From NCBI RefSeq assembly GCF_022376445.1, contig NW_025955038.1, forward strand, positions 1-64,000: DNA of 64,000 bases, written 5' to 3'. This document shows, in pieces, positions 1 to 47,802 of the stretch (its first letter is position 1; every line of letters starts with the position of its first letter). A program made the position numbers and the translations under genes. Under the pieces are notes generated by a model. The model searched no databases, was not told the origin of the DNA, and worked only from the letters and a program-made list of their open reading frames with translations. This DNA comes from Fomitopsis serialis (Eukaryota; Basidiomycota; Agaricomycetes; Polyporales; Fomitopsidaceae).

Positions 1-1869
1 GAGCAATTCGCGTCGATATCTATAGGATCTACTTCAGCTGGGTCGTCCAAGGACAAGCCATCCTTCGCAAGCCCATCGTCAGTCGCACCTCTCCAGCCTC
101 GCACGGACAGGCAGCTGCCGACGGAGGTCATCATCGCTGCATCTCCAGTTGAGGTCGAAAGGGCCGTCCGCGCTCTGCTGAACGCACTCACCATGGAGCG
201 TTTCGACTCGATCTCGGACAAGATCATCGCGTGGGCGAACAAGTCGGAGAACGAGCGCGACGGACGGACACTCATCCAGGTCATCCGGCTCATATTCGAG
301 AATGCGACGGACGAGGCGACGTGGTCAGAGATGTACGCGCGGCTGTGCCGGAAGATGATGGAACAGATCAGCCGAAGATCCAGGCAAGGGTATCAAGAAT
401 GTGAGGGGCAGACCCGTTGCGTGCAGCTCTTCCGCAAGTACCTCCTAAACCGGTGCCAAGAGTTCCAACGCGGTTGGGCCACGAATGAAAGCACTGACGC
501 CACGGCTGCGTCGGCGAAGGACGAGTCCGGCGAAACGCTCTGACTCGGAAGAATATAACTGGCAGAAGGCGAAGCGGGGGGTCTCGGGCTTATCAAGTTC
601 GTCGGTGAGCTGTTCAAGCTGCAGATGCTGATGGAGCGTATCATGCATGAATGTGCCAAGAAGCTCCTGGGCAACATCGACACCTGAGGAGGAAGAGATC
701 GAGCGTGGCGTGCTCTTCACGACCGTCGGGCAATTGCTCGACACGCCGAAGGCTCGCGCGCACATGGATGTCTACTTTCGCGTATGAAGGAGCTGACGAA
801 GAACCCGAACGTCAACTCACGTATGCAGTCATGCTTCTCGTAAGCATTCCTGAATTAGAACAGTCCTTGTGTTAACCCCCTCCCTTATAGGACGTTATCG
901 AGTTGCGCGAACGCAAGTGGATACCGCGTATCCAGACCGCTGCTCCACCACAATCGCTGCTGTCCATGCCCAAGCCGCGGAGGAGACCGCTGCGAAGGAG
1001 AAGGACTACCAGCGCACTCTAAGCATGTCGCGTAACGGCTCCGGGCGTGGCGGCCACCGTGGTGCGCAGTTGCAGGTCGGCCTGGGTCCCGATGGCTGGT
1101 CCGTTGCCGGCAATGCCCCTTCGCGTGTGCCCCAAAGGCGGGCGACCTGTCTAACTTCGGCAAGATCAGCAAAACCAACGCCATAACCTTTGGTCCTACG
1201 GGTGTGTTTGCGAATAAGGACTCCGCATCATCGAATATGTTCTCGAAGTTGACGGAGAACCCAGAGCCCGGAGCAGAGGCTACGACCGCACGACCGAGTT
1301 GGCGACCAAACCACGAGGCTTCTGTCGACTTGGGCTCCGATGGCTCGCCCGAGGCTCCGCCCCAGCGCAGGAAGCTCAACCTGCTCCCACGTACCCTGCC
1401 TCAGCGCAACGAGACGCAGGACCTCTCGATGTCAGAACCATCGGACTCCACTGCGCCATCAATGTCTGAGGAGGAGGCGAAGACCCGCGTTGTCGAGGAC
1501 TCAAAAGAGTTCTTCAGCGTCCGCGATCTGGGCGAGGCTGAGGTGTACTTCAGCAAGCTTCCTTCAGAGCACCAATGGCTGCTCGTCGACAAGCTCGTAA
1601 CCTCTGCGATCGAGTCGAAGGACAGTGACGCGCGACTCGTTGCCGACTTTTTCTCTTGGGCGGTATCGAACAACCTCTGTTCACCGGAGACCTTCGAGAA
1701 GGGCTTCACGCCGACCGCGGACATCCTTGATGACATTGTAGTTGACGCGCCGAAGGCACTCGACCTGATGGCGAACATGATGAAGGGTGCGCAGCTTGAC
1801 GAGGAGCGACGGACCAGGCTTGCGAGCAAATCTATGGACAGTGATAAGTTAATCAGCCTGCTATCATAG
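1..1869 (+). pseudogene. eIF4G copy A, frameshifted (MIF4G + MA3), 5' end outside window
   Basis: Fragment of translation initiation factor eIF4G, the scaffold that links cap-bound eIF4E to eIF4A and the 40S ribosome. An open frame runs from base 1 into the MIF4G domain (TMERFDSISDKIIAWANKSE near 190-250), close to the canonical basidiomycete sequence. Around 375-420 the frame shifts and returns. A stop at 541 follows, and the rest of MIF4G (about 560-835) is split among frames. The intron after MIF4G is recognisable at 840-890 (GTAAGC...TATAG) and is followed by codons for DVIELRERKW. The linker is frameshifted again at about 945 and 1130-1200. The MA3 domain is open from 1204 to the stop at 1869. 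With at least four disruptions this is almost certainly a pseudogene, although the MA3 reading frame is intact. The N-terminal eIF4E-binding part is either missing or lies upstream of the window. Confidence 0.85.
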
Positions 1870-2717
1870 AACAGTAGTACGTCCTCTGCTTCATTATCTG
1901 TTCCCGTCTCGCTGGTCATGGTTCGCTCGTCCTCGTGCATCATCCGCATCTTGTTATCGTTCCACACACGTCTGCGCTGGCTGGCCTGCGTCGCAATGTA
2001 CAACATCCATAGCTCACTGTCAATGAATGCCCGGGATCGAGCGCTCGGAAGTGGCCGAGACCCTGAGCCGATACGTTGATAACTTGATTAGCCTCCGCAC
2101 CGTGACGTCGACATGAGTACTTACTCAGACGGTCACCGCCTCCTCGCGCAGCAGCGCGCTCAGGCTCGTCCTTGGTCACATACAATATGTGGAGTTACTC
2201 TGATACCCACTGGTCAGGACCATACTCCTCGGAACGAGATTCACGTATCCTCATGCTTGGTTCGTCAGTCATTCCTACTCAGGCTGCCTTCCGAACATCA
2301 TATTTTTCTTAGCACCCGTGCAGACCCTCGATATGAAAAGAAATATCTTGTGTACGACAATGCAAGAGGGAACAGTAGTCGTGGCCGGTACTCAGGATCG
2401 TGCTCGGAGGTGCGATGCCTCATGCCTAGTCAGTACTTCAGTGAGTTTACTTGAATTGACCCGATCAGGCGCTCAGGGAACGGCATATAGCAAGGTTTGC
2501 TGATTGGAAGTTGCCGTAAACAACCCTTCCTGTTGGATCACGAGGAGACGGCGCAGCCCTAGAGTCACTGAGCCTGTGAAAGCATCAAGCCGACGTGCGT
2601 CATCCAGTTCGCTGCGTACGCCGTCTGTCTGAACCATCTCCTCATCTACCAAGTCGTCGCTCGCCGCCACAATCCCTCTTGTAGATCTCGTATAGGAGAA
2701 GGCACATCCGTGACGCA
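1870..2717. other. Intergenic spacer, nothing identified
   Basis: The stretch between eIF4G copies A and B holds only short, compositionally ordinary open frames on both strands. None resembles a known protein. I see no repeat, promoter motif or RNA gene that I could defend. Confidence 0.5.
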
Positions 2718-4320
2718 ATGGAGGAACAATTGGCATCGATATCCTTGGAACCTGCTGCGGCCGGGTCGCTCGAGGGCGAGCTCCCGTCGGCAAGCCAATC
2801 GCCAGTTACACCTCTCCAACCTCGCACGGGCAGGCGGCCTCCGACAGAAATTATCGCAGCTGCCTCCCCAATGCGGGTCGACAGAACCGTCCACGCGCTG
2901 CTGAACGTACTCACGATGGAGCGCATCGACCCTGTCTCAGGCGCAATCATTGCGTGGGCGAACAAGTCAGAGCACGAGGAGGATGGTCGCTCGCTCATCC
3001 AGGTCATTCGGCTCGTGTACAATGCGGCGATCAGCAATCCCACCTCGTCAGAGGTGTACGCACTCCTGTGCCGACGGATGATGGAGGGGATCAGCTCTAG
3101 GGTTCAGGACAAGGACATCAAGGATGCGGAGGGCAGGCCTCTGGCGGGAGGGCAGCTTTTCCGCAAATACCTGCTGAACCGGTGTCAGGAGGACTTCGAG
3201 CGCGGCTGGGCTGCCCATTCTACCGCTGAGAGCGACAGGTCGCGCGATACAGCTCCACGCGCGAACGAGGACTACCCTGCGCGATGGACAGCAAGGCGGC
3301 TGGGGCTTGGTTTGATCAAGTTCATGGGCGAGCTGTTCAACGTGCGGTTAATTCCGGAGCGTATTATGCACGAGTGTGTGAAGAAACTCCTAAGGAACAT
3401 AGAGAACCCCGAGGAGGAGGAAATTGAGAGCTTATGCATGCTTCTCACCACCGCCGGCGCGCTGCTTGACATACCGAAGGCCCGTCTCCACATGGATGTC
3501 TACTTCGAGCGAATGAGAGGGCTGACGAGAAATCCGAACGTCAGCCCCCGCATGCAAGCAATGCTCCAGGCAAGTCTTCTCAAACAAAGGTTATCGCAGC
3601 TAACAGTAACCCCCCACAGAATGTCGTTGAACTGCGTGAACGGGAGTGGGCTCCTGTTGACCAGGATGTCACGCCTCACTCAGTCGTCTCACCGAGGGGC
3701 ACTGGATCAACACCACGTCCCAATCCTGGCGTACCTCCAATAGATCGCGCGGCGGATCTCCACGCGCTGGTAATCGTGCCCAAGGCGCTGCAGATGCCAG
3801 TGGCCGGTCTTTTGGTGGCCACACTAGTTCGCGCGCGGTGGGTGACCTTGACTCACTTCAACAAGCCAAATAGACTACTGACATTTGGGCCGTAGGGTGT
3901 ATCTTCGAGGGACGAGGGCAAGGGCGATTCCGTATCAATGCCACTGCGGGACCCGAATATCACCTCGACGGAGGGTCCTGGACTCGCAACAGAGACTGCG
4001 ACCGCACGAACGAGTCGCGAGGCCAGTCCCGAGACTCCGCCGCAGCGGCGCACGAAGCTCAACCTGCTTCCACGCACTCTGCCTCGGCGTGACGAGACGC
4101 GGGCTCACTCGACGTTGGATCCGTCGGACTCGGCTGCGCCATCGATGTCCCAGGACGACGCGCAGATCCGTGTTGGTCCAGGTGAAGCCTCCGAGTCGAT
4201 AGAATCCTTCAGCATCGTGACCGAGCCGGGCGAACATGATGAAGGGCGCGCAGCTTGACAAAGAGCGACGGACTCGGCTTGAGAATAAATCCACGAACAG
4301 TGATAAATTGATCGGACAGC
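2718..4320 (+). pseudogene. eIF4G copy B: open MIF4G domain, nonsense codon and MA3 internal deletion
   Basis: The open frame from ATG 2718 covers a short leader and a complete MIF4G domain (from about 2895 to 3569), which includes the conserved [20 protein letters not shown] segment. No eIF4E-binding region precedes it. The domain ends at the usual splice position (ATGCTCCAG), but here the donor is GC: an intron 3570-3619 (GCAAGT...CACAG, 50 nt) gives an in-frame continuation NVVELREREW, matching the other copies. That exon meets a TAG near 3891 and continues in the same frame afterwards (LRTLPRRDET-like linker, about 4050-4100). The MA3 domain is reduced to its first and last pieces. The C-terminal piece (about 4232-4320) is in another frame. 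The translated product would be a MIF4G-only protein of about 375 aa if the intron is spliced, or 341 aa if it is read through. Probably a pseudogene, but the MIF4G frame is clean. Confidence 0.75.
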
Positions 4321-5200
4321 TTTGCGTAGGGCATGGAACGTCTGTATAACGTAGGTGGAACATATCATAGACATTAAAATACTTCATTACATAAGCCACG
4401 CAGAAGCGCGCTGCGGCTGCAGCCTTTTGAGTTGACTACTTCTGCAACTTCACCGCAACCTTATGGTCTTCGCAAGGCTCAGGGCTTGGACTTGAAAAAC
4501 ACTCCAAGTATCACCTATACGCTGCCCAAGAACTGATTGCCATCTCACTACTTCTGGGCGGCCATACTGGAATTGCATGTCTAGCGGCACTGCGTGTCTG
4601 GCTGGATCGGACGCCAGCCGCCACAAACACTACGTTTGCTTACGTCTGTGAGGCTTTGAAGTCTCGAGGGCCCACGAGGTAGCCGCCGGGTTGCCCGTCG
4701 AGCTGCGCAGTCCTTACGCGCGCCCAGGAAGTGGCTATCCCCGTCTCTGAATGAGGAACGACTCCGGATCCAGCGCGAGGAAGGCGTGGGAGGCGGTCAG
4801 CGGGCGAGCCCTGTAGCGGCCGCGGAGAGTGGCCAACTATTCGTTTCTAGAGGAAGTCGGCGACCGGAGGAGTCGGCGAGAGAAAGACAGCAGAGGCACC
4901 TCTATGTACAAGCCCGGGGGTGGGCGGAGTACGCGAGCGAGAGAAAGAAACTGAGAGACCAATGTAAGGATCTGTAGGCCTCCCGGAAGACCCTCGTCAG
5001 GCCTGCCGCCAGGGCCCTCACAGCATGTAACAATGCCACGCCTCGAACTCTATCAAACCAACTGAGCACTTCTGTCCAGGATCCGGGCCGACATGTGTGC
5101 ATATGTGTATGGACTCGCAGCGATGTGACATGGACACTCCAGCATGGAAGAATCACAGCTTCAGGTATGCATACCATACATATAATGGAATACGTACATC
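4321..5200. other. Intergenic, nothing identified
   Basis: After the copy B remnant there is about 880 bp with no open frame that I can relate to a protein. The stretch ends exactly at the left terminal repeat of a MITE. Confidence 0.5.
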
Positions 5201-5490
5201 TACTGTAACGTTTCGACCATAGGTTCGGTCACAGGTCGCACCCTCCCTCGAACTAGGGTTTCAGTTGATATGTCACAGGTCACAGAGGGGTCCGAACTCA
5301 GTATTCCCGTCGGCGGTCACAGGTATACAAATGCACTTTCGGGCCTGCGACGCAGTGCTTGCAAAGGCGGTCACCGGCGAACTATCCAAGTTCTGTGTTC
5401 ACAGGTCACCAGGCCCTGTGAACTGGGGATTTCGCCAGTTCGTTGGTCACAGGTCACACCCCGCGAACCTATGGTCGAAACGTTACAGTA
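5201..5490. mobile_element. MITE-1, 286 bp, perfect terminal inverted repeats, TA duplication
   Basis: The left end at 5201-5227 is the exact reverse complement of the right end at 5464-5490 (27 bp including the flanking TA). Taking TA as the target duplication, the element is 5203-5488 and its ends begin CTGTAACG. The interior holds repeated GTCACAGGTCAC-type motifs (about 5226, 5270, 5314, 5366, 5400 and 5444), typical of subterminal transposase-binding repeats. There is no coding capacity, so it is non-autonomous. TA duplications fit the Tc1/mariner superfamily, but a 3-bp ATC duplication (5198-5200 and 5491-5493) is an equally literal reading. It lies upstream of eIF4G copy C. Confidence 0.85.
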
Positions 5491-5944
5491 ATCCGTGCTG
5501 CCACCAGTGAGTAAATTCGACTGGAAGGCATCCTCAGCGATCATGTCTTAGACGTGGATGACCGTCAGAGCAGGGCTTTTTGCTCAGAGGCTTTTGACGA
5601 TCTGAGCGCGGGTCAGCTTCTGAGCTTCCTAATGAAAAGGATCCTTCTGTCAGATGAACACGAGGACCAGGTGCACAACCTCAACGCGCAAGCCTGGCCT
5701 GCACCACCTGTTATTCTCCACGTATCGTCGTTGACTGCGGTTTGATAAAGTTCTAGCCGGGTGGTTATATGACAGTCGAAAGTGCGGTGTGCGAAACGCA
5801 GCTTCCCACCACATCGACTTTCCTCGTCCACCAATACCCCACTGTCTAGTGTAAGGAAAACCACTCGTTCACAGAGGAGTCTCAGCTTTCTACGTGCGAC
5901 GCCGATGTGCCTGACTTACTCCCGTAGCACTTGTCAGAATCAGA
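5491..5944. other. Presumed upstream region of eIF4G copy C
   Basis: This 450-bp stretch lies between MITE-1 and the copy C start codon. No protein-like frame is recognisable and I do not see a clear TATA box. It should contain the promoter and 5' UTR of copy C if that gene is expressed. Confidence 0.4.
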
Positions 5945-8900
5945 ATGAGCAAATCCTCGACACCAACGGCATCCAAGCCATCGCCCCAGCTCCCGTCCAA
6001 GTCAGCTTGGGCCAAGGGCCCATCGCAGTCGGCTGCCTCAGCCCCCTCGCCACATTTCGCATTACGCGCGCCGAGCCAGGGCCGTCCGCGACCGATTTAT
6101 CCAGTCAAGGACGTAGCATTTCAGGACGGCGTCGCAGGCGCACGAAGCCTGACGAACGTTGTGAAGTCAGGTATAGTACTGTCTATTGTCTCTCGTGACG
6201 GTACTGATGAGGTGTCAGCGTCTGCTGTAACAGTCGGTTCGATGAGCGACGTGTCTGCACCGATTTCTTCCTCCCCTGCCTCAGTCCCTATGATTAAGTC
6301 GGCGACGGTCTCTTCATTCGGCACTGTCCCAGCGACACCCACCTCCGCCCCGAACGGCAAGTCAGCCGGCTCGTCCACACAACCTCCCACGTCTGCCACG
6401 ACTCAGCCCAAGTTTGATGTCAAGAAGCTTTTCAACAACCCGAGCAGCGTGCCGCCCGTATCCAGTGTGCCTTCGCAGGCGCCTTCTGACGTTGCCTCTC
6501 CATCGACCCACCCCTCACCTCTGCCGCACGCCTCACCCTTACCGACACATGCCCAGGCACAGCCGTCTCAGATGGGCGCTCACCCATACCCCCATTACGG
6601 CGGCGGGCAGCTAAGACCTCAGCAGAATGGCGCACCTCCTCAAAGCGGGCCACCCCGTTCCCCGGTGTTCCCGCGGCAGATGCCTAATGGGCAGATGAAT
6701 GGCGTGAATGGACGACCAAATGGTGGCTCTGCGCCCACGCCTGTGTCGGCGGGCATGTCGAGTCCGCGGCTGGGTGCGCCGCATGGCGGGCAGCCCCCTG
6801 CAGGCATGCCACCCACTTCTCAGCCTGTTCCGCCCCCAGGATGGTATGGCGGTTACTACGTGAGTCTCACTATCCCTTTCGCTGACGAATACGCCGAGTA
6901 ACTTGCTTCCTCGTTCTTCAGTATGGACCATACCCCGGCATGCCATCGGAAGCTTATATATCCTACACGCCGTGGGTGCAGCCGCACGTCGGCACACCTC
7001 ACCAACAACCGCAAGGCCTACCTAGTCCGCCCCAGCCTAGTATGTCAATGTCGCCCCGCAATCCCCCTCATCAACTGCACGCCCCTGGCACGCCGACGAT
7101 GGCGCCGGCCATGCCCAACACGGGCCATCCTCCACATCCCACCCCGTCGCCACACACGCATACATCGTCCCTGTCCTCTGTGTCCTCGCCCCCACCTACA
7201 CCATCATCTGCTGGACCTGGAAACCGCCTAAATACGCTCGCACCGACGTTCCAGCCACGGGCATCGAAGGCCAAGATCACGTCGTCGGACGGCACGGAGA
7301 GGGACGCGGAGAAGAAGGTCAAGCAGCAGGCGGAGGAGAAGATCAAGCAGCAGGCAGAGGAGAAGCTGAAGAAGGAGAGGGAAGCCGAGGAGCGGAGGAA
7401 AGCTGAAGAGGATCGTGCACGGAAGGAGAAGGAAAGGGAAGAGGAGGAGCGGAGACGGAAGCAGGAGGAGGAGGCTCGCAAGGAAGCGGAGAAGGCTCAG
7501 CCGCAGGACAAGGGAATTTTCAGGATAGACACTGCTGTGACAGCGGGGGAGACATCCAAGAAGCGGCGTGCTGGCCCTCTCGACCTTTCTTCTACTCGCA
7601 GCCAACCCGTCGCCCAGCCCCTCCCTTCCGCCCTGGCCACCGCGCGGACCATTGAAGATCTTGGCAGCGTGTCGTACCCCGAGGGTATCAAGGGTCCCAA
7701 GGTCGAGCTCAACATGAACGCCAAACATGGCAAGTTCAGGTAAGAGCCCTCTTTTGCAGCGTGTATGTACGCATCACTGACACTTGATCTTAGGTATGAC
7801 CGTGACTTCCTCGTGCAGTTTATGAAGATCTGCAAGGACAAGCCTGACAACCTCCCGCCACTCGATGCCATCGGTCTCGAGCCATCTGAGCAGGGTGCTG
7901 GTGTCCCGATGAGTCGTGGTGGTTCGCAACGGCGCTCGGCGTCCGCCATGGGCCCGCCGCCTCCGAACTCCGCGCGCCAGCTGCAGGGCCTTGGTCTTTC
8001 AAATCTCAATGGTCCGAGTGGCAGTTTCACCATGGGCAAGTTCGCGACGCCGGGCATCAAGACCAGCGAGGACCGTTTCAAACAGGCGAGTGTTGGCACG
8101 CAGTTCGGCACACTACCATCTCCTATGGTCCGCCCGTCCAGTCAAGACGGTCCCAGCGCGATTGTCAGCAAGCGGGATGTCGACTGTGGAGAGGCGAACA
8201 GGGGTGGACCTGATCGCTCGTTGCACGGATTGTCATCGCTGCAGGCTGACGCTGTGCCACCCGAGTACCTCGTGCATCAATTGCATCTGACGAGCCTTGA
8301 CGAGCAACAGTACGAAGTCGACCTGCACTCGCTAGAGCTGCTTTCCAGCAAGGTCCGTGCGTTGCTCAACGGACTTACCATGGAATCCTTCGACTCGATC
8401 TCAGACCAAATCGTCGTGTGTGCAAACATGTTTAAGGATGAACATGACTGTCGATCGCTCAGCAAGATCGTCCGCCTCGTGTACGACACAGCAACCAACG
8501 ATCTTACCTCGTCTGCGATGTATGCACTCCTGTGTCGCAGAATGATGGGCAAGATCAGCCCTGGGGTTCGGGATGAGGCCGTCAGGGACGCGGAGGGCAA
8601 GTCTATTGCGGGAGGGCAGCTTTTCCATAGATTGCTGCTGAATCGGTGCAAGGAGCACTTCGAGCGCTGCTGGGCTGCACGTTCTACTATGGAGGAAGGC
8701 TACCAGGAAACCGCTGCGCAGCAGACAGCAAGGCGGCAGAGTCTCGGCCTCATTAAGTTCATGGGCGAGCTGTTCAAGATGCAGATGCTTACAGAGCATA
8801 TCATGCACAAGTCCATCAACGAACTTCTGGCCAACGTCGAAGACCCCGAAGAAGAGGAGATCGAGGGGCTGTGTTTACTGTTGACCACTGTCGGCTTGCA

Positions 8901-10104
8901 AATCGACACGCCGAAGGCCCGTCGTCACATGGATGGCTACTTCGCATGTATGAGAGGGCTTATGAACAAGCCGAACGTCAATCTGCGTATGCGAACTATG
9001 CTCCAGGTAGATTTACACGCCTCAAAGTCTGCGTCGCAACTAATTTGAACACAGGACGTCATTGATCTTCGTGATCACAAATGGCTAGCTGACGATGAAA
9101 CTGCTGTTTCTGATTCTGCTGCTACTACTCACATGCAAGATACAGTAATCGCCGCAAGGGAAGAATCAGGTTACTCGCACGTATCTGAGGCGTTCTGTGG
9201 TGAGTTTCTATGCAGCGGTCATGGTTCCCACCTGTCGGATGTCGATGCCGATGGCTGGTCCGATGTCCGAGCCCCCACCCTTCCCAGTATCCGTACGATA
9301 TCGAGCTCGGAGGTGGAGGTGGGCGGTCCATCCCCATCCACCGAGGCCAGCGGAGTAGCATTCGAAGCGGACAAGTCAGCAAACATCCCTGCAAAGGATC
9401 AGCAGCAGGAGGAGGCCCTGTCGTCATGGGTACTCTCGAGCGTGGCTTCAGAGTCGATGGACAGTCCCAAGTACGCGATAGAGTATGCTGCGGCAGAGTC
9501 ATCGCAAACCTACTGTCGCAAGGCAAGTGTGGGAGCTGCCCATACAGTTGTACCGGAGGGAAATTCTACGACCGCGGAGGAGCCGAGTCCCGGTATCCGA
9601 CGAAGACTCGGGCCCCCTCAATCGGATCTCGGAGCGCTGTCCATATTCGACGTTCATACCCCCAATGTCAACCGCCTCCGCATGACGCCAATGACTGAGC
9701 AGCTCAAGTTGCAGCTCAGCGACAACTTAAAGGGGTTCTTCGAAGTGCGGGACCTGGACGAGGGCGAGGCGTATTGTCGCAAACTTTCGTCGGGGCACAG
9801 GTGGCGCCTCGTCGATATGCTTGTGTTATACGCTGTCGTCTCCGCTAGGGCAGTGGATGCGCGGCTCGTGGGTGAGCTGTTCGCGCGTGCTGCAAAGAAG
9901 GACTTCATCTCGCCAGATGCTTTTGATGACGGGTTTTCACCAACTCTAGAGAACCTTCACGTCTTCGCATTGCATACGCCGAATGCTGCGAGCATTCTTG
10001 CCGTTATGTTAAAGAAGGCGCAGCTCGATAGTGCACGACTGCACAGTTTGATCCGTAGAACCGCAGGCAGTGACTATGATATGCTCGTCGGTCTCCTACT
10101 GTAA
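5945..10104 (+). CDS. eIF4G copy C, apparently intact full-length gene
   Basis: Four exons (5945-6859, 6922-7739, 7794-9006, 9055-10104) join in frame to give 1,331 aa. The order is that of fungal eIF4G: Ser/Pro-rich N terminus with FDVKKLFNNPSS near residues 157-168, a Pro/Gln-rich region, a Glu/Lys/Arg coiled coil (about 428-502), an eIF4E-binding motif YDRDFLV (579-585, consensus YxxxxL plus hydrophobic), MIF4G (about 762-982) and MA3 (about 1192-1331). Introns are 62, 54 and 48 nt with consensus ends. The first half is close to the canonical factor. The MIF4G domain has unusual substitutions (for example IVVCANMFKDEHD where the other copies have IIAWANKSE) and the linker and MA3 domain are strongly diverged. 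It is the only copy here that is uninterrupted. Inference: a paralogue under altered constraint, with the canonical eIF4G elsewhere in the genome. Confidence 0.88.
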
Positions 10105-26310: not shown

Positions 26311-27381
26311 CTACAGTAGCAGAGCAAGGAGCAACTCGGAGGCATCACCCATAGCCTTACATACCAACCTGTTCAGCTGCTCTCCATTAAGCTGCGTGCC
26401 CTTCAACATAATCGTGACCAAGATTAGAGCGTTCGATGAATGCAACACGATGACATCAAGAATCTCCATAATCGGGGAGAATCCAGCATCGAAAACATCT
26501 GGTGAGCAGAGCCCCTTTGACGCGACGCGGGAGAAGAAGTCTCCGACGAGCCGTGAATCCGCTACACCAGAGACGGCTGCGAACGACACCAGCCTGTTGA
26601 CCAAGCGCCACCGATGTTCAAGAGGAAGCTTGCGCAGATATGCCTCGCCTTCGTCCAAGCTGCGGGAACCGAAGAACTGCTTCGCATGCGCGCTCAGATG
26701 CAGTTTTACCAGTTCCTCGCTCAAAGGCGCGCAGGCTTCTTCGTCATAGTCTGCAGCTTGTCTTGCAGGCATCCCCTTGTTCTCGACGGATTCTTGAAGG
26801 GGCTGTGGAGGGGAATACACTGGCGATCGTGAACCTTGCGGTACTGGTGGTACTGCTGTAGAGGTGATTCCCACGCTTGCTGGCTGTGGCATTTGCGACC
26901 AGTCCGTCGCCGCCGGACCACTGGGCCCTCGCGCACTGCACGACGAGTAGTGATCTACATGTTTATCGGCAGCGAAAGCATTCTCTTCCTGTCTGTGACG
27001 GTGGAAACCGCTGAAGTCACCTGAAGACGAAGACAATGAGATTGAAGACACCGATGATGGACTGAGCGAAGTCGTGTACGAGGACCAGGCGCAGTGTGGA
27101 GGGCTAGGAAGGAGCGTGGGTTCATCGAGTTGTTTGGGCTGGGCCGTCACGTCCTTTCTGTATAGCTGGCTGAAGTGAGTCGGGCCCAGATGAAGAAAGG
27201 GTTCACCAGTGCTATGGACTGGGTGCTGCTCGCGCTGCTCATCGGCGGAAGCTGGCCCGAGCGGTCCGATATCATGCGTGTGTTGGGCAGCCTGGTCCTC
27301 CATGGGGTCGTCCTTCGCGGCTTGTACATGTGCGATGATGGGACACGGAACCAACCGGCGTCCACACAACCGGATGTCGTC
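26311..27381 (-). pseudogene. eIF4G copy E: MA3-only fragment, diverged, open frame
   Basis: The exon begins at 27381 just after a canonical intron (27427-27382, GTAAGT...GTAG) and is open to the stop at 26311 (about 356 codons). Its first codons (DDIRLCGRRLVP, then IIAHVQAAK) correspond to the exon that follows MIF4G in the other copies (DVIELRERKWVPR, TIAAVHAQAA). A Ser/Pro-rich linker and a complete MA3 domain follow (about 26730-26320: LDEGEAYLRKLPLEHRWRLV...). The MA3 sequence groups with copy C rather than with A, D, F or G: both have DEGEAY and HRWRLV where the others have DEAEVYF and HRWLLVDKLV. There is no MIF4G and no obvious own start, so it is either a dead fragment or the last exon of a fused D-E transcript. 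Confidence 0.7.
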
Positions 27382-27427
27382 CTACGAAGAATCAGACGAG
27401 AGCGGCTTCAGCATTCGTGATACTTAC

Positions 27428-30121
27428 ACGACGTGTGGACTGCCTGCACGAATCGCCGTTCGCAAGCCTTTCAAATGACTTGGCACAGACCATAGACTTG
27501 CTCACAAGCCGGGTCCATCGCTCCTCGTCAAGCTGCGCGCCCTTTATCATGTCAGCCATCAGGTCGAGTGCCTTCGGCGCCGCGCGCGTCAATGACAATG
27601 TCGTCAAGGATCTCGGCGGTCGGTGCGAAACCCTTCTCGAAGGCCTCTGGTGAACAGAGATCCTTCGACACCGCCCGAGAGAACAAGTCGCCTACGAGCC
27701 GCGCGTCGCTGTCATTTGACTCGATCGCAGAGGTAACAAGCTTGTCCACGAGCAGCCATCGGTGCTCTGAAGGAAGCTTGCTGAAGTACACTTCAGCCTC
27801 GTCCAGATCGCGGATGCTGAAGAACTCCTTCGAGTCCTCGCCAACGCGGGTCTTCGCCTCCTCAGACATCGATAGTGCATTGGAGCCTATTAGTCGATCC
27901 GGCGTCGAGCAGTCCAGCGTCTCGTCGCGCCGAGGCAAGGTACATGGAAGTAGATTCGGCTTCCTGCGCTGTGGCGGAACATCGGGCACGCCAGCGGAGC
28001 CGAAGTCGACACTGGCATCGCGGCTGGGTGTCCAAGTCCGTGCGCTCGCAGTGTCTGCAGCGGGCTCTGGGTCCTCCATCATGTCCGAGAGCTCCCGAAA
28101 TGATGGCGATGCGGTCTCATGCATGTTCTTCACAAGAACACCCGTATGACCACAGGTCATAGAGTTGGTTTTGTCTAAGTTAGATACGTCGCCTGCCTTT
28201 GCGGGCATACGACGAGGGGTACTTTCGGCGACGGACCTGCCATCGGGATCTAGGCCGACCTGCGAATGCGTAGCAATCGCAGCCTCTGCCTCGAGCTCAG
28301 GCTTCCCCATCACCTTCGAGAACAAATGCGAGCCCCATGACGATGGCGAGGATTCGTGCTTGTTCTTCTCCTTCGCAAACACACCCGTAGAATCAAAGGT
28401 TGTGGAGTTTGTATTTCTGATCTCGCAGAGGTTGTCCAAGGCACCCGCCTTTACGGGCACACGCCGAGAGGCGTTGTCAACAGAGGACCAGTCATCAAAC
28501 TCGGCTTGCGCCAGCTCACAATGGTCACCGTCACGCTTGCTGCCACTGTACGACATGCTATGCGCCCGGTTCGCAGCGGTCTCCCTCGCGGCTCGTGCAT
28601 GGACAGCAGCAATCGTAGTGGGGGTGGCAGCCAGGTTACGCGGTGACCACTTGCGTTCGCGGAACTCGAGGAGATTCTGTAAGGGATGTTAGACACGAGC
28701 AATTAACTGGCTTTAGCAATACATACGAGAAGTATGGACTGCATACGCGAGTTGACGTTCGGATGCCTCGTCAATTCCTTCATGCGCGCGAAGTAGACAT
28801 CCATGTGCGCACGGGCCTTCGGCGTGTCAAGCGTCTTGCCGACGGTCGTGAGGAGCATGCACAGACTCTCGATCTCCTCCTCCTCGGGATTCTCGACGTT
28901 ACCCAGGAGCTTCTTGACACATTCGTGCATGATACGCTCCGTGAGCATCTGGAGCTTGAACAGCTCACCGAGGAACTTGATAAGACCGAGACCTTGCCGC
29001 TTAGCCTTCTGCGCAGCATAGTATTCTTCTGAATACAGTGCAGTCTCGCCATCCTCGTCCTTGTCAGCGGCGTCCCTGGCTGCCCGGTCCGCGGTGGCCT
29101 TGGTGGCTGCGGCCGCGGCAGTGCTTTCCTTCGCAGCCCATCCGTGCTCGAAGTCTTCCTGGCACCCGTTGAGGAGATATTTACGGAAGAGCTGACCACC
29201 CGCAATGGGTTTACCCTCCACGTTCTTGATACCCTCGTCCTGGACCTTCGGGCTAATCTGCTCCATCATCTTGCGGCACAACCGCGCGTACATCTCCGAC
29301 CACCTTGCCCCATCTGTTGCATTCCCTAACACGAGCCGGAAAACCTGGATGAGCGTCCGCCCATCGTGCTCGTATTCTGACTTATTCGCCCATGCGATGA
29401 TTTGGTCAGAGATCGAGTCAAAGCGCTCCATCGTAAGCTTGTTGAGCAGCGCGCGGACCTTGCGGTCGACGACGTCCGGCGAGTTCTGGCTAGGACCTGC
29501 GTGCTCCTGTATCTCCCGGATGCCCGCCCGCTGCGAACGGTCTACAGAGTTGCCGAGTGTGGTGCTCGAAGCGGTCGCACTCTCCGTCGTGCTTCTAGGC
29601 TGGTTCAACATTGGGGAGATGTACGGGGAGGATGAGAGTGACGGGAGCGCATGGCGACCGTGCGGCACGCAAGGGTAAGATCTGTTCAAGATGGGTGGTT
29701 CCCCACTCGGGATTTGAAAAAGGGTTCTAACATCGAACTTGTTCTGGGACGTGGCGGATTTGGGAGATTGTGTGGACGAGACAGGTGAGTGGCCCTTCAG
29801 CGTGACCTGGACGGGTTCCGACGCAGAGAGCATCTCCGAGTCTGACATGGTCGTTGAAATCGACGCGGAAGTGCGCGCAGGGACGTCACCCGTGAATGGC
29901 GACGTTGAAGCAGCAAAATCTGAGACCCGGTTAGTGCAGCGCCCAGTGATGAATATGGCCGTACCTAGCACTGCAGTGCTCCTCGAGCATTGTGCACGCT
30001 CACACGTTCCGCCACGAAACGGCTTGCACCCTGCACCCACACAATTTCCTTGCAAGCAAAATTGGTCTGGCGAGTGTGAGGCAGATAGACACACCGAGGG
30101 CCTATGGTCCGTATAACTCAT
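27428..30121 (-). pseudogene. eIF4G copy D: MIF4G plus most of MA3, no eIF4E-binding region, late frameshift
   Basis: Exon 1 (30121-28727, 465 codons) and exon 2 (28676 downward) are joined by a 50-nt GT-AG intron at the conserved position after MIF4G. The N terminus matches copy C up to NKFDVRTLF, then jumps directly to MIF4G (from about residue 220). The coiled coil and the YxxxxL eIF4E-binding segment are missing. MIF4G is uninterrupted and canonical. The linker carries an internal duplication (two VFAKEKNK/VLVKNMHE-type units). MA3 reads normally until about 27590, where a small insertion shifts the frame and ends the protein at 27552, giving 839 aa. The true C-terminal MA3 part continues in the other frame to about 27470 and then changes into unrelated codons that run to a splice donor at 27427. 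It could still yield an eIF4E-independent, DAP5-like protein. I call it a probable pseudogene. Confidence 0.78.
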
Positions 30122-35427: not shown

Positions 35428-36165
35428 GCCCACTGTGTCTCCCTTTCGTGACACAGTCGTATACCCATATTTGGAGATACCACAACCTGGCCGCACCTAG
35501 GTGAGTGTCTGAGTCAATTCTGCCTTGCCGAAGGATCGAGCGATTTAGAAGTCAAGCACCGACATGTGTCCATTTAACGGGCCATGGTGAGGAGAATTCA
35601 TCACCACCCTCTGACTTTTCTTTCTTTCTCGTACTCGTCGTGTTCACATTGTCGGCGAGGTTTGCTGACAATTCGATATCTAGACCTTACTTTGTTGGAC
35701 GCGAGAACTTCCGGCGCTCGCAGACGATCGCATGTAGTGTCAAGTCTCGACGACATTCAGGATGATTGTAGCGTCGGGAATGCACATGCTGAGAGTCTCA
35801 TTACTGGAGTGTCCTGTGAGACGGGACTCACGTCTCCATTCCGTGTAATTACCCTCACAGATCATACATGATATCCGTATGTACTGTAGTCTAGGGGTGA
35901 CCTACACCGCTGTTGTACATTGCGATCCTTCATGAACTTTCCTGACTACCGTGTCCATCTTTCGTCCATCTTTCATGAGCACATGGAGTCCTATGTCTGG
36001 TGCGCTAGCAAGGCAGCTGATTTCTACCCCGCGGGGAGGAGGTCCGGGAAACGAAACTCCGAGTCGTGAGCGCGTGAGCAGGTACCCATCACAGACCCAT
36101 CATCATGCTCGTCCCCTGAATTGACCAACGCCGCTACGGCTGGTACGACCAACATCTACGACGAC
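35428..36165. other. Intergenic, nothing identified
   Basis: Holds the 3' end region of the dynactin gene and the 5' region of the phosphotransferase gene. No further feature recognised. Confidence 0.4.
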
Positions 36166-41740: not shown

Positions 41741-44700
41741 ATGAATCCACAGCACTCAGCCTTTCCATCACGTTCCGCATCGTCGACATCGCAGTCATCG
41801 GCCCGCTACGGAAAACCGAGCACAGTCGGCCAGAGCGTCGCTTTGAAGGATGGCATAGCAGGAGTACGAAACTCAATGGACATAGCGAAACCAGGTACGA
41901 TGGCCTCTGTCGTTTCCTGCGGCGGTATTGATATGGTACCAGCCTCTGCTTTAACTTCGGCTCGCTCAACGAGTTCTCCGCTACAACCGCGTTGCGTTTA
42001 CCGTCGGCTCCGGCGGTCAGACATGGGACCACCCCATCCATGTGGAAGGGGACACGCAACTCGTCTACGCAACCTCTCGTGACTGGCACGAATCATCAGC
42101 CTCGGGCTGAGAAGTTCGATGCTAAAAGGCTATTCCAAGATCCGAGCAGTGTTCCATCCGTACCCGGCGCCAGTGCACCAAAACCTGGCATGTCGCTTGA
42201 GCAATACATGCCCCCTTTACCGTCGATGCAGCCAAAGATTGTCAGCAGGTCCGCCGTGAAACCGCAGGGCCTGCACAGTATGCCCCAGTCTGGCACACCG
42301 ATGCTACCCCGCGGCAATCTGCTCCCACTGGACGCGTCTCATCCGCGCGTTCTCACTGGCGCGACCCATCAAAAGTTCGATGTCAAAAGGCTGTTCCAAG
42401 ATCCGAGCAGCGTTGCGTCTGTGTCCGGCACGCCGAACCCTGGCATGTCGAACACCGTCAGCGGGTCCGCTGTGAAGCCCCAGGTCTGCCTGGTACGCCC
42501 GAGTCTAGCACGCCGATGCTACCCAATTCGCCCCGAGTGAATGCATCTCGCCCACCATTGTCACCAGCGCTATTCTGAGTACGGGGCACCGCTCGGCGTA
42601 TACTACGCCATCGCCCCACACGCGTCCATCTCCGTCCTTCCCGTCCTCACCGGCACCCATTTCGCCTGCGTTCGCGCCAGAACAGTCTGCCAGCCGCTTG
42701 TATCGTCCTTCAATTCAGCCGCGCACCTCGAAGGTGATGATGTCGTCGACGGATGGAAGGCAGGTGCATCTCGACGAGCGCATGGGGCGCACGACTGGTC
42801 CGTTGTCGCCCACTGTGTCACCCTCGGGCGTCAAGTCATGGAATAAGGGGGTTCGCACTAAGAGCTTGTCGGGAGACCAGACGTCATACCAAGCGCAACG
42901 CGAACTCGAGAGGCTGATTAAACAACTGGAGTGGGTGCGACTAGAGCCGAAGATCGAACAGGAGACAGGGAACAAGCATAATAACAAGGAGGTGAGGCCA
43001 GACAAAGTTGCAGTGGCGGGGGATGCGCCGAAGTCGCCTTCTCGCCCTCTTGCTCTTTCCCCCGCTGGCAATCGCCCTGTCCCACGGCCTCTGTCTTCAT
43101 TGGATACGGCGAGTTCACCGACCCATTCGCCGGATGGCGTTGGCCGTATGGCCCCCGCATTGCTCACCGAGCTCACCGAGCTCACCGAGGAGACGTTTGA
43201 TTCGGTCTCAAACCAGATCATCATGCAGATGAATGAATCAGAGGACGAGCGGACGCTCGTCGACATCACACGTTCAGTGCTCAAGACAGCGGTGGACGAA
43301 CCTACGTTGTCGGAGTTGTATGCCCGTCTATGCCGGAGGATGATGGACCAGCTCAGTCTAAACGTCCGTCACGGTGACGAGGTCGGGGTGAGGAGGGCAT
43401 GTCCGCCACCGGTGGCCAGCTCTTCCGCTGGTACCTCCTCAACCAGTGTCAAGAGGACTTCGAGCGCGAATGGCTACGAGGGAGAGCGCAGCCGCAGTAA
43501 CTGAAGATGACGATCCTGGGGAGCTTTGCATGATGCAAAACGACGGGCTCTCGGTCTCAGCAAGTTCATTGGCGAGTTGTTCAGAGTGTGGATAGTGACG
43601 GAGCACGTAATGCACGAGTGCGTCAAGAAGCTGCTGACGAATGTCGAGACCCGGAGGAGGAGGAATTGAATGTCTATGCGAGGTCCTGACCACCGTCGGT
43701 CAGCAGCTCGACACGCCGGAGGCCCGCGCACAGGTGGATGTCTACTTCACGCATCTAACAGGGTGGGCGAACAACTCAAATGTAAACCTCGTATGCAAGC
43801 CATGCTGCAGGTAAAGCTTTCTACGTCTAGACTAGCATGGCTCTGGCGGCTGATCATCGTACAGAACATCATTGAGCTGCGCGCTCGCGGGTGGGCGTCC
43901 CGCGACCAGGACGCAGCGCCTTGCTCGATCCCCGCTTGGGCTCAGGTCGGCGCGCAGTATACAACAACGACCGTTGCAAGCTTACAGAAGTTTTGCCTCC
44001 ATTCAAAGTATCGAATGGTGGCTTAAACACGAGTGACCTGTCTCACTTTGGCAAGGGCAGCAAAACCAATTACATGACCTCCGGGCCCTCAGGTGTCTTT
44101 GCGAAGGACAGGAGCAAAGGGGGTCCCACGTCAGCACGAGACCCGAATATGTTCTCCCAGCTGATGAAGAATCCGGAGCGCTCGGCGGAGCCTGAGGCGG
44201 CGCAGTCGAGCATTCGACCAGTGCGCAAAGCTAGCATCGACTTCGACTCCGTGAGCACTTCCAGAGATCCATGGCGGCGTAGGGAGCTCGATCCACTTCA
44301 GCGAACCGCTCCCGAGCCCAACGAACATGAGACAGCTTCGACGCCGGCCCAGTCGGATGCTGTTTACTCGGATGATGAAGACTATTCCGTGCCCCCGATG
44401 ACCGAGGATGAGGCGAAGAGTCAGGTTAGTGAAGACTCGCGGGAGTTCTTCAGCACCCGCGACTTGGACGAGGCTGAGGTGTACTTCGGCAAGCTTCCTT
44501 CGGAGCACCGATGGTTATTGGTCGACAAGCTTGTTGCCTCCGCTTTTGAGTCGAATGACGCCGATGCACAGCTCGTCGCCGACTTCCTCTCCCGGGCAGT
44601 GTCGAAGAATCTCTGCTCGCGGGAATCCCTCGAGAAAGGCTTCAACCCCACCGCTGAGGTTCTTGATGACATTGCAGCGTGTGCCTGGAGAGCGTTCAAC

Positions 44701-44778
44701 ATGATGTCGATGATGAAGAAGGGCGCGGGGTTGAGGTCTTCAGCGAGACTCAGTACGAAGCCTGACACGAGCCTATGA
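41741..44778 (+). pseudogene. eIF4G copy F, frameshifted, near full length
   Basis: ATG 41741 starts an N terminus parallel to copy C (KPSTVGQSVALKDGIAG; VSC..MVPASALT). The frame breaks near 41990, where the second frame continues with EKFDAKRLFQDPSSVPSV. This segment is repeated at about 42370. A stop occurs at 42540, and the next part (about 42640 onward) resumes in a further frame. MIF4G begins near 43140 (LTEETFDSVSNQIIMQMNESE), shifts frame at about 43380 and 43500, and is degenerate to the splice site at 43810. The conserved intron is 43811-43864, followed by NIIELRARGW. The linker and MA3 (about 44395-44720, EDSREFFSTRDLDEAEVYF) are open but the last MA3 helices are shifted. The eIF4E-binding segment is not found. 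It is a pseudogene; the MA3 part belongs to the canonical lineage. Confidence 0.8.
42113..42500 (+). repeat. Tandem duplication of the FDVKRLFQDPSS segment in copy F
   Basis: The block coding FDAKRLFQDPSSVPSV at about 42116-42165 recurs as FDVKRLFQDPSSVASV at about 42374-42425. Both are followed by NPGMS/KPGMS and GSAVKPQ/RSAVKPQ segments, so the unit is about 260 bp. Copy C has a single such segment. The duplication therefore arose in the copy F lineage. Confidence 0.75.
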
Positions 44779-45269: not shown

Positions 45270-47802
45270 CTTCGATGCCTTCCGCCATGGCTACCGCACG
45301 TATTATCGAAGATCTTGGCAGCATATCGTACCCGAAGGAATCAAGAGCCCCGAGGTCGAGCTCAACGTGAACGCCAAGCGTGGCAAGTTCAGGTAAGAGC
45401 CCTCTCCTGCAGCACGCATCTACGCATCACTGATCCTGGGTCTCAGATACGACCGCGAATTCCTCATGCAGTTCATGGAGATCTGCCAGGATAAGCCTGA
45501 CAACCTCCTGTCACTCGATGCCATCGGTCTCGAGCCCTCTGAACAATCCGCTGGTGTTCCGGTGAGTCGCGGTGGTTCGCAACGGCACTCGTCGTCCGCC
45601 ATGGGCCCGCCGCCTCCGAACTTTGCGCGCCAGCTGCAGGGCCTTGGTCTTCCAAATCTCAATGGTCCGACTGGCAGCTTCACCATGGGCAAGTTCGCGA
45701 CGCCGGGCATAAAGACCAGCGAGGACTGTTTCAAGGAGGCGAGCATGGGCCTTCCAGCCTCGATGGCCGGTGGTCCTCCGGGCGTTGGCACGCAGTTCGG
45801 CGCACGACCATCTCCCATGGTCCGCTCGTCCAGTCAAGACGGTCCAGCGCGATTGTCAGCAAGCGTACCAGGAGCAAGCGGGATGTCGACCGTGGAGAGG
45901 CGAACAAGGGTGGTCCGGATCCGTCCTTTGGTAGTTTGTCGCTCTCGCAGCCTGGTATGATGTCTCTCGAGCCGGTGGCGCCGCTCGAGCACTCCACAAA
46001 TCGTTGGCAACCTACGAGCCATAGCAAGAAGCCGCAGCAGGTCGAACCAGACTCGCCGGACGTCGTCGATCGTAAGGTCCGCGCGCTGCTCAACAAGCTT
46101 ACGATGGAGCGCTTTGACTCGATCTCTGACCAAATCATCGCATGGGCGAATAAGTCAGAATACGAGCACGATGGGCGGACGCTCATCCAGGTTATCCGGC
46201 TCGTGTTAGGGAATGCAACAGATGAGGCAAGGTGGTCGGAGATGTACGCGCGGTTGTGCCGCAAGATGATGGAGCAGATTAGCCCGAAGGTTCAGGACGA
46301 GGGTATCAAGAACGCAGAGGGTAAACCCATTGCGGGTGGTCAGCTCTTCCGTAAATATCTCCTCAACGGGTGCCAGGAAGACTTCGAGCACGGATGGGCT
46401 GCGAAGGAAAGCACTGCCGCGGCCGCAGCCACAAGGCCACCGCGGACCGGGCAGCCAGGGACGCCGCTGACAAGGACGAGGATGGCGAGACTGCACTGTA
46501 TTCAGAAGAATACTATGCTGCGCAGAAGGCTAAGCGGCAAGGTCTCGGTCTTATCAAGTTCATCGGTGAGCTGTTCAAGCTCCAGATGCTCACGGAGCGT
46601 ATCATGCATGAATGTGTCAAAAGCTCCTGGGTAATGTTGAGAATCCGAGGAGGAGGAGATCGAGAGTCTGTGCATGCACCTCACTACCGTTGGACAATCA
46701 CTTGACACGCCGAAGGCCCGTGCGCACATGGATGTCTACTTTGCGCGTATGAAGGAGTTGACAAAGGATCCGAACGTTAAGCCACGTATGCAGTTTATGC
46801 TTCTCGTGCGTATTTCCTGAGTCAGTTCCATTGCTTGCGCCTAACATTTCTTATAGGACCTTCTTGAGTTCCGCGAACGCAAGTGGGTACCGCGTAACCT
46901 GGCTGCCGCTCCCACCACGATTGCTGCTGTCCATGCGCAAGCTGCGAAGGAGACCGCCGCAAACCAGAAAGACTACCAGCGTACACTTAGCATGTTGCGC
47001 GGTGGCTCCAAGCGTGGCAGTGACCCTGGTGAAATGATGCAAGGTCCTGACGGCTGGGCCATTGCTGGCAATGCGCCTCTCCGTCTGTCTCCAAAGGCGG
47101 GTGGCTTGTCTAACTTCGGCAAGATCAGCGAAACCAACTCGATGTCCTTTGGTCCTACGGGCGTGTTTGCAAAGGACAAGCGCAAGCGCGAATCCTCGTC
47201 GTTGTCACGGGTCTCAGATTTGTCCTCGAAGTTGATGAAGAACCCCGAGCTCGCTGCAGAGGCTGCAGGTGTCGACTTGGGCTCCGCTGGTGCACCTGAG
47301 GCTCCGTTACAGCGTAGGAACCTCAATCTTTTTCTTCCACAATGCATGTCTAAGCCCGACGGGGCTCGGACGGACTCAACGCTGGCACAGTCGGAGGCTG
47401 GCCACTCGGACGGCGAAGAGTCTACCGCAGGCAAAGACCCGCGTTGGTGAAGACTCGAAAGAGGTCTTCAGGCAGTCGTGGTCCTGAGGTGTACATCATC
47501 GAGCTCCCTTCAGAGCACCGATGGCGGCTTGTCGACAAGCTCGTAACTTCTGCTATCGAGTGGAAGGAGAGCGACGCGTGGCTCGTTGCCGACTGGGCGG
47601 TGTCGAAGAATATATTCACCAGAGACGTTTGAGAAGGGTTACATACCGACCGTGGAGATCCTTGACGCTATTTCCATTGAGGCGCCGAAGGCACTCGACC
47701 TGATGGCGGACATGAAGAAGGCGGACAGCTTGACGAGGAGCGACGGACCCGGCTTGCGAGCGAGTCTATAGACGGTGATACGTTGATTAGCCTGCTAGCA
47801 TC
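45270..47802 (+). pseudogene. eIF4G copy G, multiple single-base indels
   Basis: Starts within the region just before the eIF4E-binding motif (IIEDLGS, then KVELN-like codons with one base lost near 45335). The intron at 45393-45446 matches the position and 54-nt length of the copy C intron. The motif YDREFLM follows. Another lost base near 45845 breaks the frame before DRKVRALLNKL. MIF4G (about 46070-46800) is canonical but shifts near 46432 and again at 46622-46650. The intron 46806-46856 precedes DLLEFRERKW. The linker is open to 47449, then MA3 is broken in at least three places (about 47440-47600). The pattern of one-base indels in otherwise well-conserved codons is that of a young pseudogene. 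The Ser/Pro-rich N terminus and coiled coil are missing. Confidence 0.85.

What the first reader, a model, noticed from the sequence alone, without database searches (positions are those of the whole stretch)
1..47802. Seven eIF4G copies in three clusters within 48 kb
Seen: seven regions carry MIF4G and/or MA3 sequence of eIF4G (A 1-1869, B 2718-4320, C 5945-10104, D and E 26311-30121, F 41741-44778, G 45270-47802). Known: fungi usually have one or two eIF4G genes. Shared intron positions show gene-level duplication, not retrocopying. The clusters are separated by unrelated genes, so segments moved as blocks. Inference: an unstable locus that repeatedly copies a core translation factor, either by chance or with selection for variant scaffolds (for example against RNA viruses of the fungus).
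Basis: partly seen in the sequence, partly recalled or inferred. Interest (0 to 1): 0.85.

Follow-up and report, generated by a model that had tools for sequence, protein, structure and literature searches.

The report
Nursery of duplicated eIF4G genes
A wood-rotting fungus carries a cluster of extra, often shortened and fast-changing copies of a core protein-synthesis gene (eIF4G), apparently near the intact original, and many mushroom relatives seem to have made similar clusters of their own.

Summary
The eIF4G copies are real. The window starts at a contig end of Fomitopsis serialis and holds six eIF4G loci: A, B, C, D+E, F, G. D and E splice in frame as one gene in the other haplotype. The intact 1489-aa parent gene lies outside the window. 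Allelic contigs cover most of the array, so a pure assembly artefact is unlikely; copy A's frameshifts, perhaps also G's, look like consensus errors. Shared introns argue against retrocopying. Copies are mosaics: C joins a parent-like N-terminus to a divergent core; D and G share a conversion tract. A, B and D lack the eIF4E-binding motif. Open frames at dS 0.7-1.5 imply past selection, but alleles of C exon 4, D and E now differ almost neutrally. The antiviral idea has no direct support. Beyond the finding: of 39 other assemblies in my hand-made list with two or more eIF4G proteins, 23 have two on one contig (about 2 expected). Extra copies mostly branch with their own species' or genus' parent and evolve faster (25 of 26 comparisons). 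Best reading: a recurrent birth-and-death nursery of linked, often truncated eIF4G duplicates. My paper searches found no description of it.

The parts
1..1869 (+). Copy A: 3' part of a short eIF4G gene (MIF4G + MA3), cut by the contig start; no eIF4E-binding motif in the part held
   Evidence: allele on C150:41620-43661 at 97.9% with open MIF4G and exon 4 but a frame change in its 5' part; A-like intron-free environmental protein P0002 at 91% identity
2718..4321 (+). Copy B: MIF4G-only mini-eIF4G; exon 4 remnant with in-frame TAG (3893-3895), most of MA3 missing, in both haplotypes
   Evidence: PDB sequence match 2vso 1.7e-30; model with MIF4G fold
5945..10104 (+). Copy C: full-length-type gene, exons about 5945-6859, 6922-7740, 7795-9006, 9055-10104; eIF4E-binding motif YDRDFLV at start of exon 3; divergent MIF4G and very divergent MA3
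   Evidence: mosaic identity; C150 allele carries an 838-bp inversion
7897..8734 (+). Segment of copy C that is inverted in the other haplotype (C150:49452-50289, 98.8%)
26311..30121 (-). Copy D+E: N-terminal region, MIF4G (29464-28718), exon 4 with internally repeated linker and MA3, then a further exon-4-like exon (E, 27381-26311). In-frame MIF4G-MA3-MA3-like gene in C451; in this contig a 7-nt insertion near 27587 breaks the D frame
41741..44778 (+). Copy F: degenerate full-length-type copy; MIF4G spread over several frames; MA3 part open
   Evidence: no allele in the contigs fetched (C451 ends at 41859, C33 starts at 46193)
45270..47802 (+). Copy G: part of exon 2, exon 3 with eIF4E-binding motif (YDREFLM) and MIF4G, degenerate exon 4; four 1-nt deletions in exon 3 against the parent (possibly consensus errors)
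   Evidence: allele (MIF4G from residue 38 of the model on) at start of C33
28930..29484 (-). Gene-conversion tract shared by D with G
   Evidence: 98-100% to 46051-46606 in most 100-column windows, flanks 67-86%
46051..46606 (+). Gene-conversion tract shared by G with D

Best explanation
The locus is a birth-and-death nursery of eIF4G duplicates. An intact parent gene (outside the window) repeatedly seeds local, intron-containing copies. Copies often lose the N-terminus that binds eIF4E, diverge quickly, exchange pieces by ectopic gene conversion, invert or decay. Several were kept as coding genes for a long time and would make eIF4A/eIF3-type scaffolds that cannot join eIF4E (A, B, D+E) or a divergent full-length scaffold (C), acting as side factors or competitors of eIF4F. 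SHOWN: copies, introns, mosaicism, motif loss, stop-free frames, asymmetric rates, recurrence in other Agaricomycetes. INFERRED: duplication by unequal or ectopic recombination; the proteins' binding partners and function; that lack of the eIF4E motif matters.
For: Copies and parent. Same exon 3/4 intron in six copies. Conversion between D and G, with a second tract shared by D and G on the other haplotype (97-99% there, where the two D alleles are 79-86%). Mosaic C: N-terminal 1.4 kb about 93% DNA identity to the parent, but 60% protein identity over exon 3 and 30% over exon 4. No YxxxxL-hydrophobic motif in the N-terminal parts of A, B and D. Open MIF4G frames despite parent-copy dS of 0.72 (A), 1.38 (B), 1.49 (C); in 500 simulations per setting without selection a stop-free frame appeared in at most 0.8% for A, B and C. 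Parent-copy dN/dS 0.13-0.25 over MIF4G for A, B, C, D. B is modelled as a MIF4G fold (mean pLDDT 76.4; best match yeast eIF4G in 2vso, target TM 0.79). Recurrence: 23 of 39 assemblies with at least two eIF4G proteins have two on one contig, about 2 expected. Extra copy on the longer branch in 25 of 26 comparisons. Nesting by species. 35 of 84 full-MIF4G proteins lack the eIF4E region, and none of the 35 has the motif upstream of MIF4G. Own-genome controls: eIF3c at two loci on two contigs, eIF4E dispersed, RPB2-type genes at three loci on three contigs.
Against: Allele comparisons suggest little present constraint: pooled by hand, A exon 4 part, C exon 4, D N-terminus, D exon 4 and E together show 5 synonymous and 22 nonsynonymous differences, about neutral, against 93 and 25 for the parent's four exons. 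B alleles give 0.29-0.49 and D MIF4G 0.49. Substitutions in B and C hit highly conserved and variable columns about equally once the parent's own match is allowed for (B 124/163 and 16/33; C 108/157 and 13/31; parent 167/168 and 25/42). C is broken by an inversion in one haplotype and D by a frameshift in the other. No expression data for this strain. In F. serialis the link of parent to array rests on contig C150 alone, whose left end looks chimeric, while C601 leaves collinearity 17 kb from the parent gene. Same-contig evidence elsewhere rests on contig length, not coordinates, and on gene models. No other gene family was tested across species as a control.
Confidence: 0.6

Rival explanations
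1. Neutral birth and death: the locus sits in a recombination-prone region and the copies are relics with no lasting function; open frames survive because the copies are young or refreshed by conversion.
For: Near-neutral allele differences in A exon 4, C exon 4, D and E; F and G degenerate; MA3 mostly lost in B and broken in G; a zinc-ADH gene is locally multiplied in the same region too; conserved and variable columns hit alike.
Against: B and C have dS above 1 from the parent yet open MIF4G frames, unlikely without past selection; an A-like protein from another sample is intact and intron-free, as from a spliced transcript (inferred, DNA not seen); the pattern recurs for this gene in many lineages.
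Confidence: 0.27
2. Conflict-driven turnover: variant or decoy scaffolds are repeatedly selected against RNA viruses or selfish elements that use eIF4G.
For: Rapid, recurrent, linked turnover with loss of the eIF4E site is what an arms race could produce. Mycoviruses with IRES elements are reported (PMC5874917, seen as search listing with abstract start only).
Against: No dN/dS clearly above 1 (one comparison at 1.02 rests on four differences; two had no synonymous difference, with 5 and 6 nonsynonymous); no virus link tested or seen; nothing ties the copies to defence.
Confidence: 0.08
3. Assembly artefact: split alleles and misassembled repeats inflate the copy number.
For: Consensus deletions at the contig start; C150 left end joins sequence matching C445/C446 to C413-type sequence; the assembly holds two haplotypes in places only (eIF3c twice; RPB2-type genes once each).
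Against: Six distinct copies lie on one contig with 60-98% mutual identity, and a second set of contigs carries A, B, C, D+E and G in the same order; the public record lists such proteins under F. serialis contigs of the same lengths, 61130 and 187702.
Confidence: 0.05

Closest known systems
eIF4G1-type eIF4G (parent gene; yeast p150/TIF4631, human eIF4G1)
   Same: MIF4G and MA3 domains; the full-length parent and C have the PF12152 region and a YxxxxL-hydrophobic motif (the motif's role in eIF4E binding is recalled). PDB sequence matches of B, C and D are yeast and human eIF4G and DAP5.
   Different: A, B and D lack the eIF4E motif; B lacks most of MA3; D+E has a second exon-4-like unit; the copies cluster and evolve fast.
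DAP5/eIF4G2/NAT1 (animal eIF4G-like factor that does not bind eIF4E; PMC6076257, PMC9977666, seen as search listing with abstract start only)
   Same: Architecture of A and D: MIF4G plus MA3 without the eIF4E site. The modelled B MIF4G also matches 4iul, the DAP5 MIF4G.
   Different: Not an orthologue as far as tested: the copies branch beside fungal full-length eIF4G of the same species or family (DAP5 itself was not in the trees). No W2 domain was found in the ORFs scanned; that DAP5 has one is recalled.
Other multi-eIF4G systems: yeast pair (PMC10484682), plant eIF4G/eIFiso4G (PMC5790229), five in trypanosomes and Leishmania (PMC6075789, PMC13067578), Drosophila eIF4G2 in spermatogenesis (PMC4388691); all seen as search listing with abstract start only
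   Same: Several eIF4G paralogues in one organism, some specialised.
   Different: As I know them those are stable, unlinked paralogues (recalled); here copies are linked, recurrent by lineage, mosaic and partly decaying.
Birth-and-death gene clusters with gene conversion (general concept, recalled)
   Same: Local duplication, conversion, loss, mixed ages.
   Different: Such clusters are usually of immune, receptor or detoxification genes (recalled), not of a core initiation scaffold.

Membership tests
eIF4G | MIF4G domain over Pfam cut-off | tested here: met
   A, B, C, D, F (combined pieces), G; E has none
eIF4G | MA3 domain over Pfam cut-off | tested here: inconclusive
   Met in A, D, F; C below cut-off; no match reported for B or G; E below detection although it aligns to exon 4
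eIF4G | eIF4E-binding motif YxxxxL-hydrophobic upstream of MIF4G | tested here: inconclusive
   Absent from the N-terminal parts of A, B, D; A's 5' end in the window is cut by the contig. Seen by eye in C (YDRDFLV) and G (YDREFLM)
eIF4G | binds eIF4A and eIF3 and supports translation | not testable with these tools
   needs biochemistry
DAP5/eIF4G2 | MIF4G and MA3 without eIF4E site | tested here: met
   A and D; B has MIF4G only
DAP5/eIF4G2 | orthology to animal eIF4G2 | tested here: inconclusive
   Copies branch among fungal eIF4G of the same species or family, but no animal sequence was included
DAP5/eIF4G2 | C-terminal W2 domain (recalled) | tested here: not met
   No W2 match in the window ORFs scanned
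retrocopies | no introns | tested here: not met
   Exon 3/4 intron kept in A, B, C, D, F, G; further introns in C and G
birth-and-death cluster | linked copies of mixed age with gene conversion and decay | tested here: met

The most novel reading that the evidence does not exclude
Across mushroom-forming fungi the eIF4G neighbourhood is a standing source of linked scaffolds without an eIF4E site, which arise, act for a while and die, driven by a recurring conflict (viruses, selfish elements or nucleus-nucleus competition in the dikaryon). The unusually divergent haplotypes around the parent gene would then be a trace of that selection.
Probability: 0.12. Interest if true: 0.85.

Novelty: new variant of a known kind. 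Interest (0 to 1): 0.58.

Why it matters
Core initiation factors are expected to be stable. If eIF4G repeatedly spawns linked, truncated, fast-evolving copies across Agaricomycetes, the mushroom fungi offer a natural series of experiments on what an eIF4G scaffold can do without eIF4E, why extra scaffolds are tolerated or favoured, and whether translation initiation is under conflict in these fungi. It also warns annotators and phylogenomics users: eIF4G proteins of Agaricomycetes are not safely one-to-one orthologues, and short gene models may be genuine paralogues.

Tried and rejected
Mating-type linkage: homeodomain (PF05920) matches lie on C468, C596 and C112, and STE3 (PF02076) matches on C734, C370, C287, C541 and C223. 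None is on C756, C150, C451, C33 or C601. With contigs this short, distant linkage is not excluded.

Structural RNA, tRNA or tandem repeats as cause of the array: no Rfam match at gathering score, no tRNA, and one short tandem repeat inside copy C's exon 2.

Retrocopying: rejected. A uniform older duplication shared by all Polyporales: not what the trees show for most extra copies, but B, C and Rhodofomes P0063 group together on long branches (SH-aLRT/UFBoot 99.4/84), so an older origin or long-branch attraction is open for them.

Whether C601 holds the array too: not settled. C601 is collinear with C150 only up to C601:25449.

Other MIF4G/MA3 matches in the genome (C37, C445, C803, C790) match the Pfam models but were not assigned to a gene family.

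Retention of conserved columns was meant as a test for function. It gave no clear sign of it and is reported as evidence against.

Limits: searches listed 120 of 1085, 120 of 1727 and 120 of 240 proteins, and only about 8,000 candidates each were scored. The table of 39 assemblies was compiled by hand from those lists: named species with at least two entries that seemed to be from one assembly. Left out were, for example, Somion occarium (possible isoforms), Grifola frondosa and Taiwanofungus camphoratus (different strains or records). Same contig was judged by equal contig length. The 20 taxa of the branch-length comparison were chosen by me; one pair (Sanghuangporus) is between two species, and in Daedalea quercina the longer protein lacks the eIF4E region, so its role as parent is uncertain.
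Full report
What the window is. The window is bases 1-64000 of contig C756 (187,702 bases) of a 66-Mb assembly in 806 contigs. Protein records found by search list contigs of exactly 61,130 and 187,702 bases under Fomitopsis serialis, a polypore of the Fomitopsidaceae, so I take that as the organism. Neoantrodia serialis is, from memory, a synonym.

The observation. Searching the whole assembly gave 19 MIF4G and 9 MA3 matches. In the window they fall on A, B, C, D, F and G; E has no Pfam match but aligns to the parent's exon 4. The intact parent gene has four exons and 1489 codons, and lies on C150:16709-21339 and C601:3982-8612, both minus strand, outside the window. A second set of contigs matches the window in order: C150 to 1-19598, C451 to 17514-41859, and C33 from 46193 to at least 60900, mostly at 95-99%. 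I read these as the other haplotype. A recent large duplication is not excluded, because the assembly holds eIF3c twice but RPB2-type genes once each. F and the first part of G have no such match in the contigs I fetched. On C150 the array starts about 20 kb from the parent gene. That join rests on C150 alone: its left end looks chimeric, and C601 leaves collinearity at 25,449.

Errors and real lesions. In the first 2 kb C756 has 19 deletions and 2 insertions against C150, 9.3 deletions per kb against 0.3 further in, so A's broken frame is probably consensus error; C150's A has an open MIF4G but a frame change near its 5' end. G has four 1-nt deletions and one 3-nt insertion against the parent over 1.4 kb, which may also be errors, but its exon 4 is broken in both haplotypes. 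C is open in C756, while its C150 allele carries an 838-bp inversion. D of C451 continues, through a GTAAGT...TAG intron in phase 0, into E with no stop until the end; C756 has a 7-nt insertion that breaks this. B has an in-frame TAG and lacks most of MA3 in both haplotypes.

How the copies changed. The exon 3/4 intron is at the same place in A, B, C, D, F and G, and C and G keep further introns: gene-level duplication, not retrocopying. C's first 1.4 kb is about 93% identical in DNA to the parent, but its exon 3 is 60% and exon 4 30% identical in protein, so it is a mosaic. D and G, in opposite orientation 17 kb apart, are 98-100% identical over about 550 bp with flanks of 67-86%; on the other haplotype a different tract at the 3' end of MIF4G is 97-99% identical between D and G where the two D alleles are only 79-86%. 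This is what repeated ectopic gene conversion leaves.

Selection. Parent-copy dS and dN/dS over MIF4G are 0.72 and 0.13 (A), 1.38 and 0.18 (B), 1.49 and 0.17 (C), 0.18 and 0.25 (D of C756). With 500 simulations per setting and no selection, stop-free MIF4G frames at such distances appeared in at most 0.8% of runs for A, B and C, but in 10.6% for D. Past constraint on A, B and C is therefore likely. Present constraint is doubtful: pooling (by hand) the allele comparisons of A exon 4 part, C exon 4, D N-terminus, D exon 4 and E gives 5 synonymous and 22 nonsynonymous differences, near neutral, against 93 and 25 for the parent's exons. B alleles give 0.29 (N-terminus) and 0.49 (MIF4G), D MIF4G alleles 0.49, C exon 1 alleles 0.20. 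The copies also lost highly conserved and variable columns about equally once the parent's own match is allowed for. I therefore call the copies transient rather than settled genes.

What the products would be. The parent has one YxxxxL-hydrophobic motif, YDRDFLM, at the start of exon 3; the N-terminal parts of A, B and D have none. C and G keep one. B, C and D match solved eIF4G MIF4G domains by sequence, and the B model (mean pLDDT 76.4; residues 1-50 unreliable) matches yeast eIF4G in complex 2vso best and DAP5 also. A, B and D+E would thus be scaffolds unable to join eIF4E in the known way; binding itself was not tested. A JGI protein, P0002, on a 2.1-kb contig, is 91% identical to A over the matched 80% and runs across the exon 3/4 junction without an intron, which suggests a spliced transcript of an A-like gene in a related fungus; I did not see its DNA.

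Recurrence in other fungi. Three protein searches listed 301 distinct proteins. From them I compiled 39 other assemblies with at least two eIF4G-like proteins. 84 of the 85 proteins so tabulated (one more species with a single entry is included) carry at least 90% of the MIF4G region, so these are not split genes. In 23 of 39 assemblies at least two lie on one contig, against about 2 expected for 30-Mb genomes; 16 have them on different contigs, many of these short. The 23 include Polyporales, Hymenochaetales, Boletales, Agaricales and Jaapia (orders recalled). Two pairs have locus tags close together: EYR40_007051 and 007074 in Pleurotus pulmonarius, ACEPAG_3282 and 3283 in Sanghuangporus baumii (names). 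35 of the 84 have no match to the eIF4E-binding region and none of the 35 has the motif upstream of MIF4G; of the 49 with a match, 41 have the motif. Gene-model error can inflate the 35.

Trees. A FastTree of 237 sequences and an IQ-TREE of 34 sequences place most extra copies beside the full-length protein of the same species or genus, for example F. schrenkii (100/100), Daedalea quercina (97.6/100), Trametes versicolor (100/100) and Postia (100/100). In F. serialis, A (with P0002), D, G and the parent form one clade (96.7/99). B, C and Rhodofomes P0063 form another (99.4/84) with long branches, older or attracted. Exceptions to species-wise grouping include Pisolithus tinctorius P0188, several Suillus proteins and the Armillaria set. 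In 25 of 26 comparisons over 20 chosen taxa the extra copy has the longer branch; Rhodofomes roseus P0005 is the exception.

Controls and print. In this genome eIF3c lies on two contigs with one locus each, eIF4E-type genes are dispersed over six contigs, and RPB2-type genes lie at three loci on three contigs. Mating-type genes are on other contigs. No cross-species control gene was run. Searches of the held open-access papers for eIF4G with basidiomycete or Agaricomycete terms and for eIF4G paralogy found nothing on this (searches show only the top rows). Papers cited were seen as listings with abstract starts only.

Verdict. Observation: real with corrections. The wider pattern, a recurrent linked nursery of eIF4G duplicates, is the interesting part and needs coordinates, controls and expression data.

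Noticed in passing
C150:10502-38001 against C601:1-25449 (L017-L020, L024, L025, L036): The neighbourhood of the parent eIF4G gene is unusually divergent between the two haplotypes (83-95% identity), against about 99% over much of the array.
   Followed up: partly
C150:1001-9000 (L017): Left end of C150 matches C445 and C446 at 100%, interrupted by a multi-copy repeat, then switches sharply to C413-type sequence at 99%: possible chimeric contig or recent transposition.
   Followed up: no
window 48936-50477; 62832-64000 and on to C756:64359; C756:65761-67253: A zinc-binding dehydrogenase gene region is locally multiplied (about 83% identity), so eIF4G is not the only gene duplicated here.
   Followed up: partly
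window 53895-54953 (-): ORF with weak, below cut-off matches to AAA_16 and NACHT models.
   Followed up: no
window 21011-22298 and 36676-37227 (+): Two aminoglycoside-phosphotransferase-like (APH family) kinase gene pieces between the eIF4G clusters.
   Followed up: no
window 15413-16228: ORF region without Pfam match shares about 67-71% identity with C601:28128-28997.
   Followed up: no
proteins P0097, P0237, P0102, P0235; P0081; P0110: Some eIF4G-like proteins of Armillaria and Mycena also carry a BTB domain, one of Hermanssonia dynamin domains, one of Marasmius kinase domains: fusions or merged gene models.
   Followed up: no
C451 end, matching window 31001-41859: 20 single-base gaps on one side relative to the window suggest consensus errors in C451 as well.
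   Followed up: no
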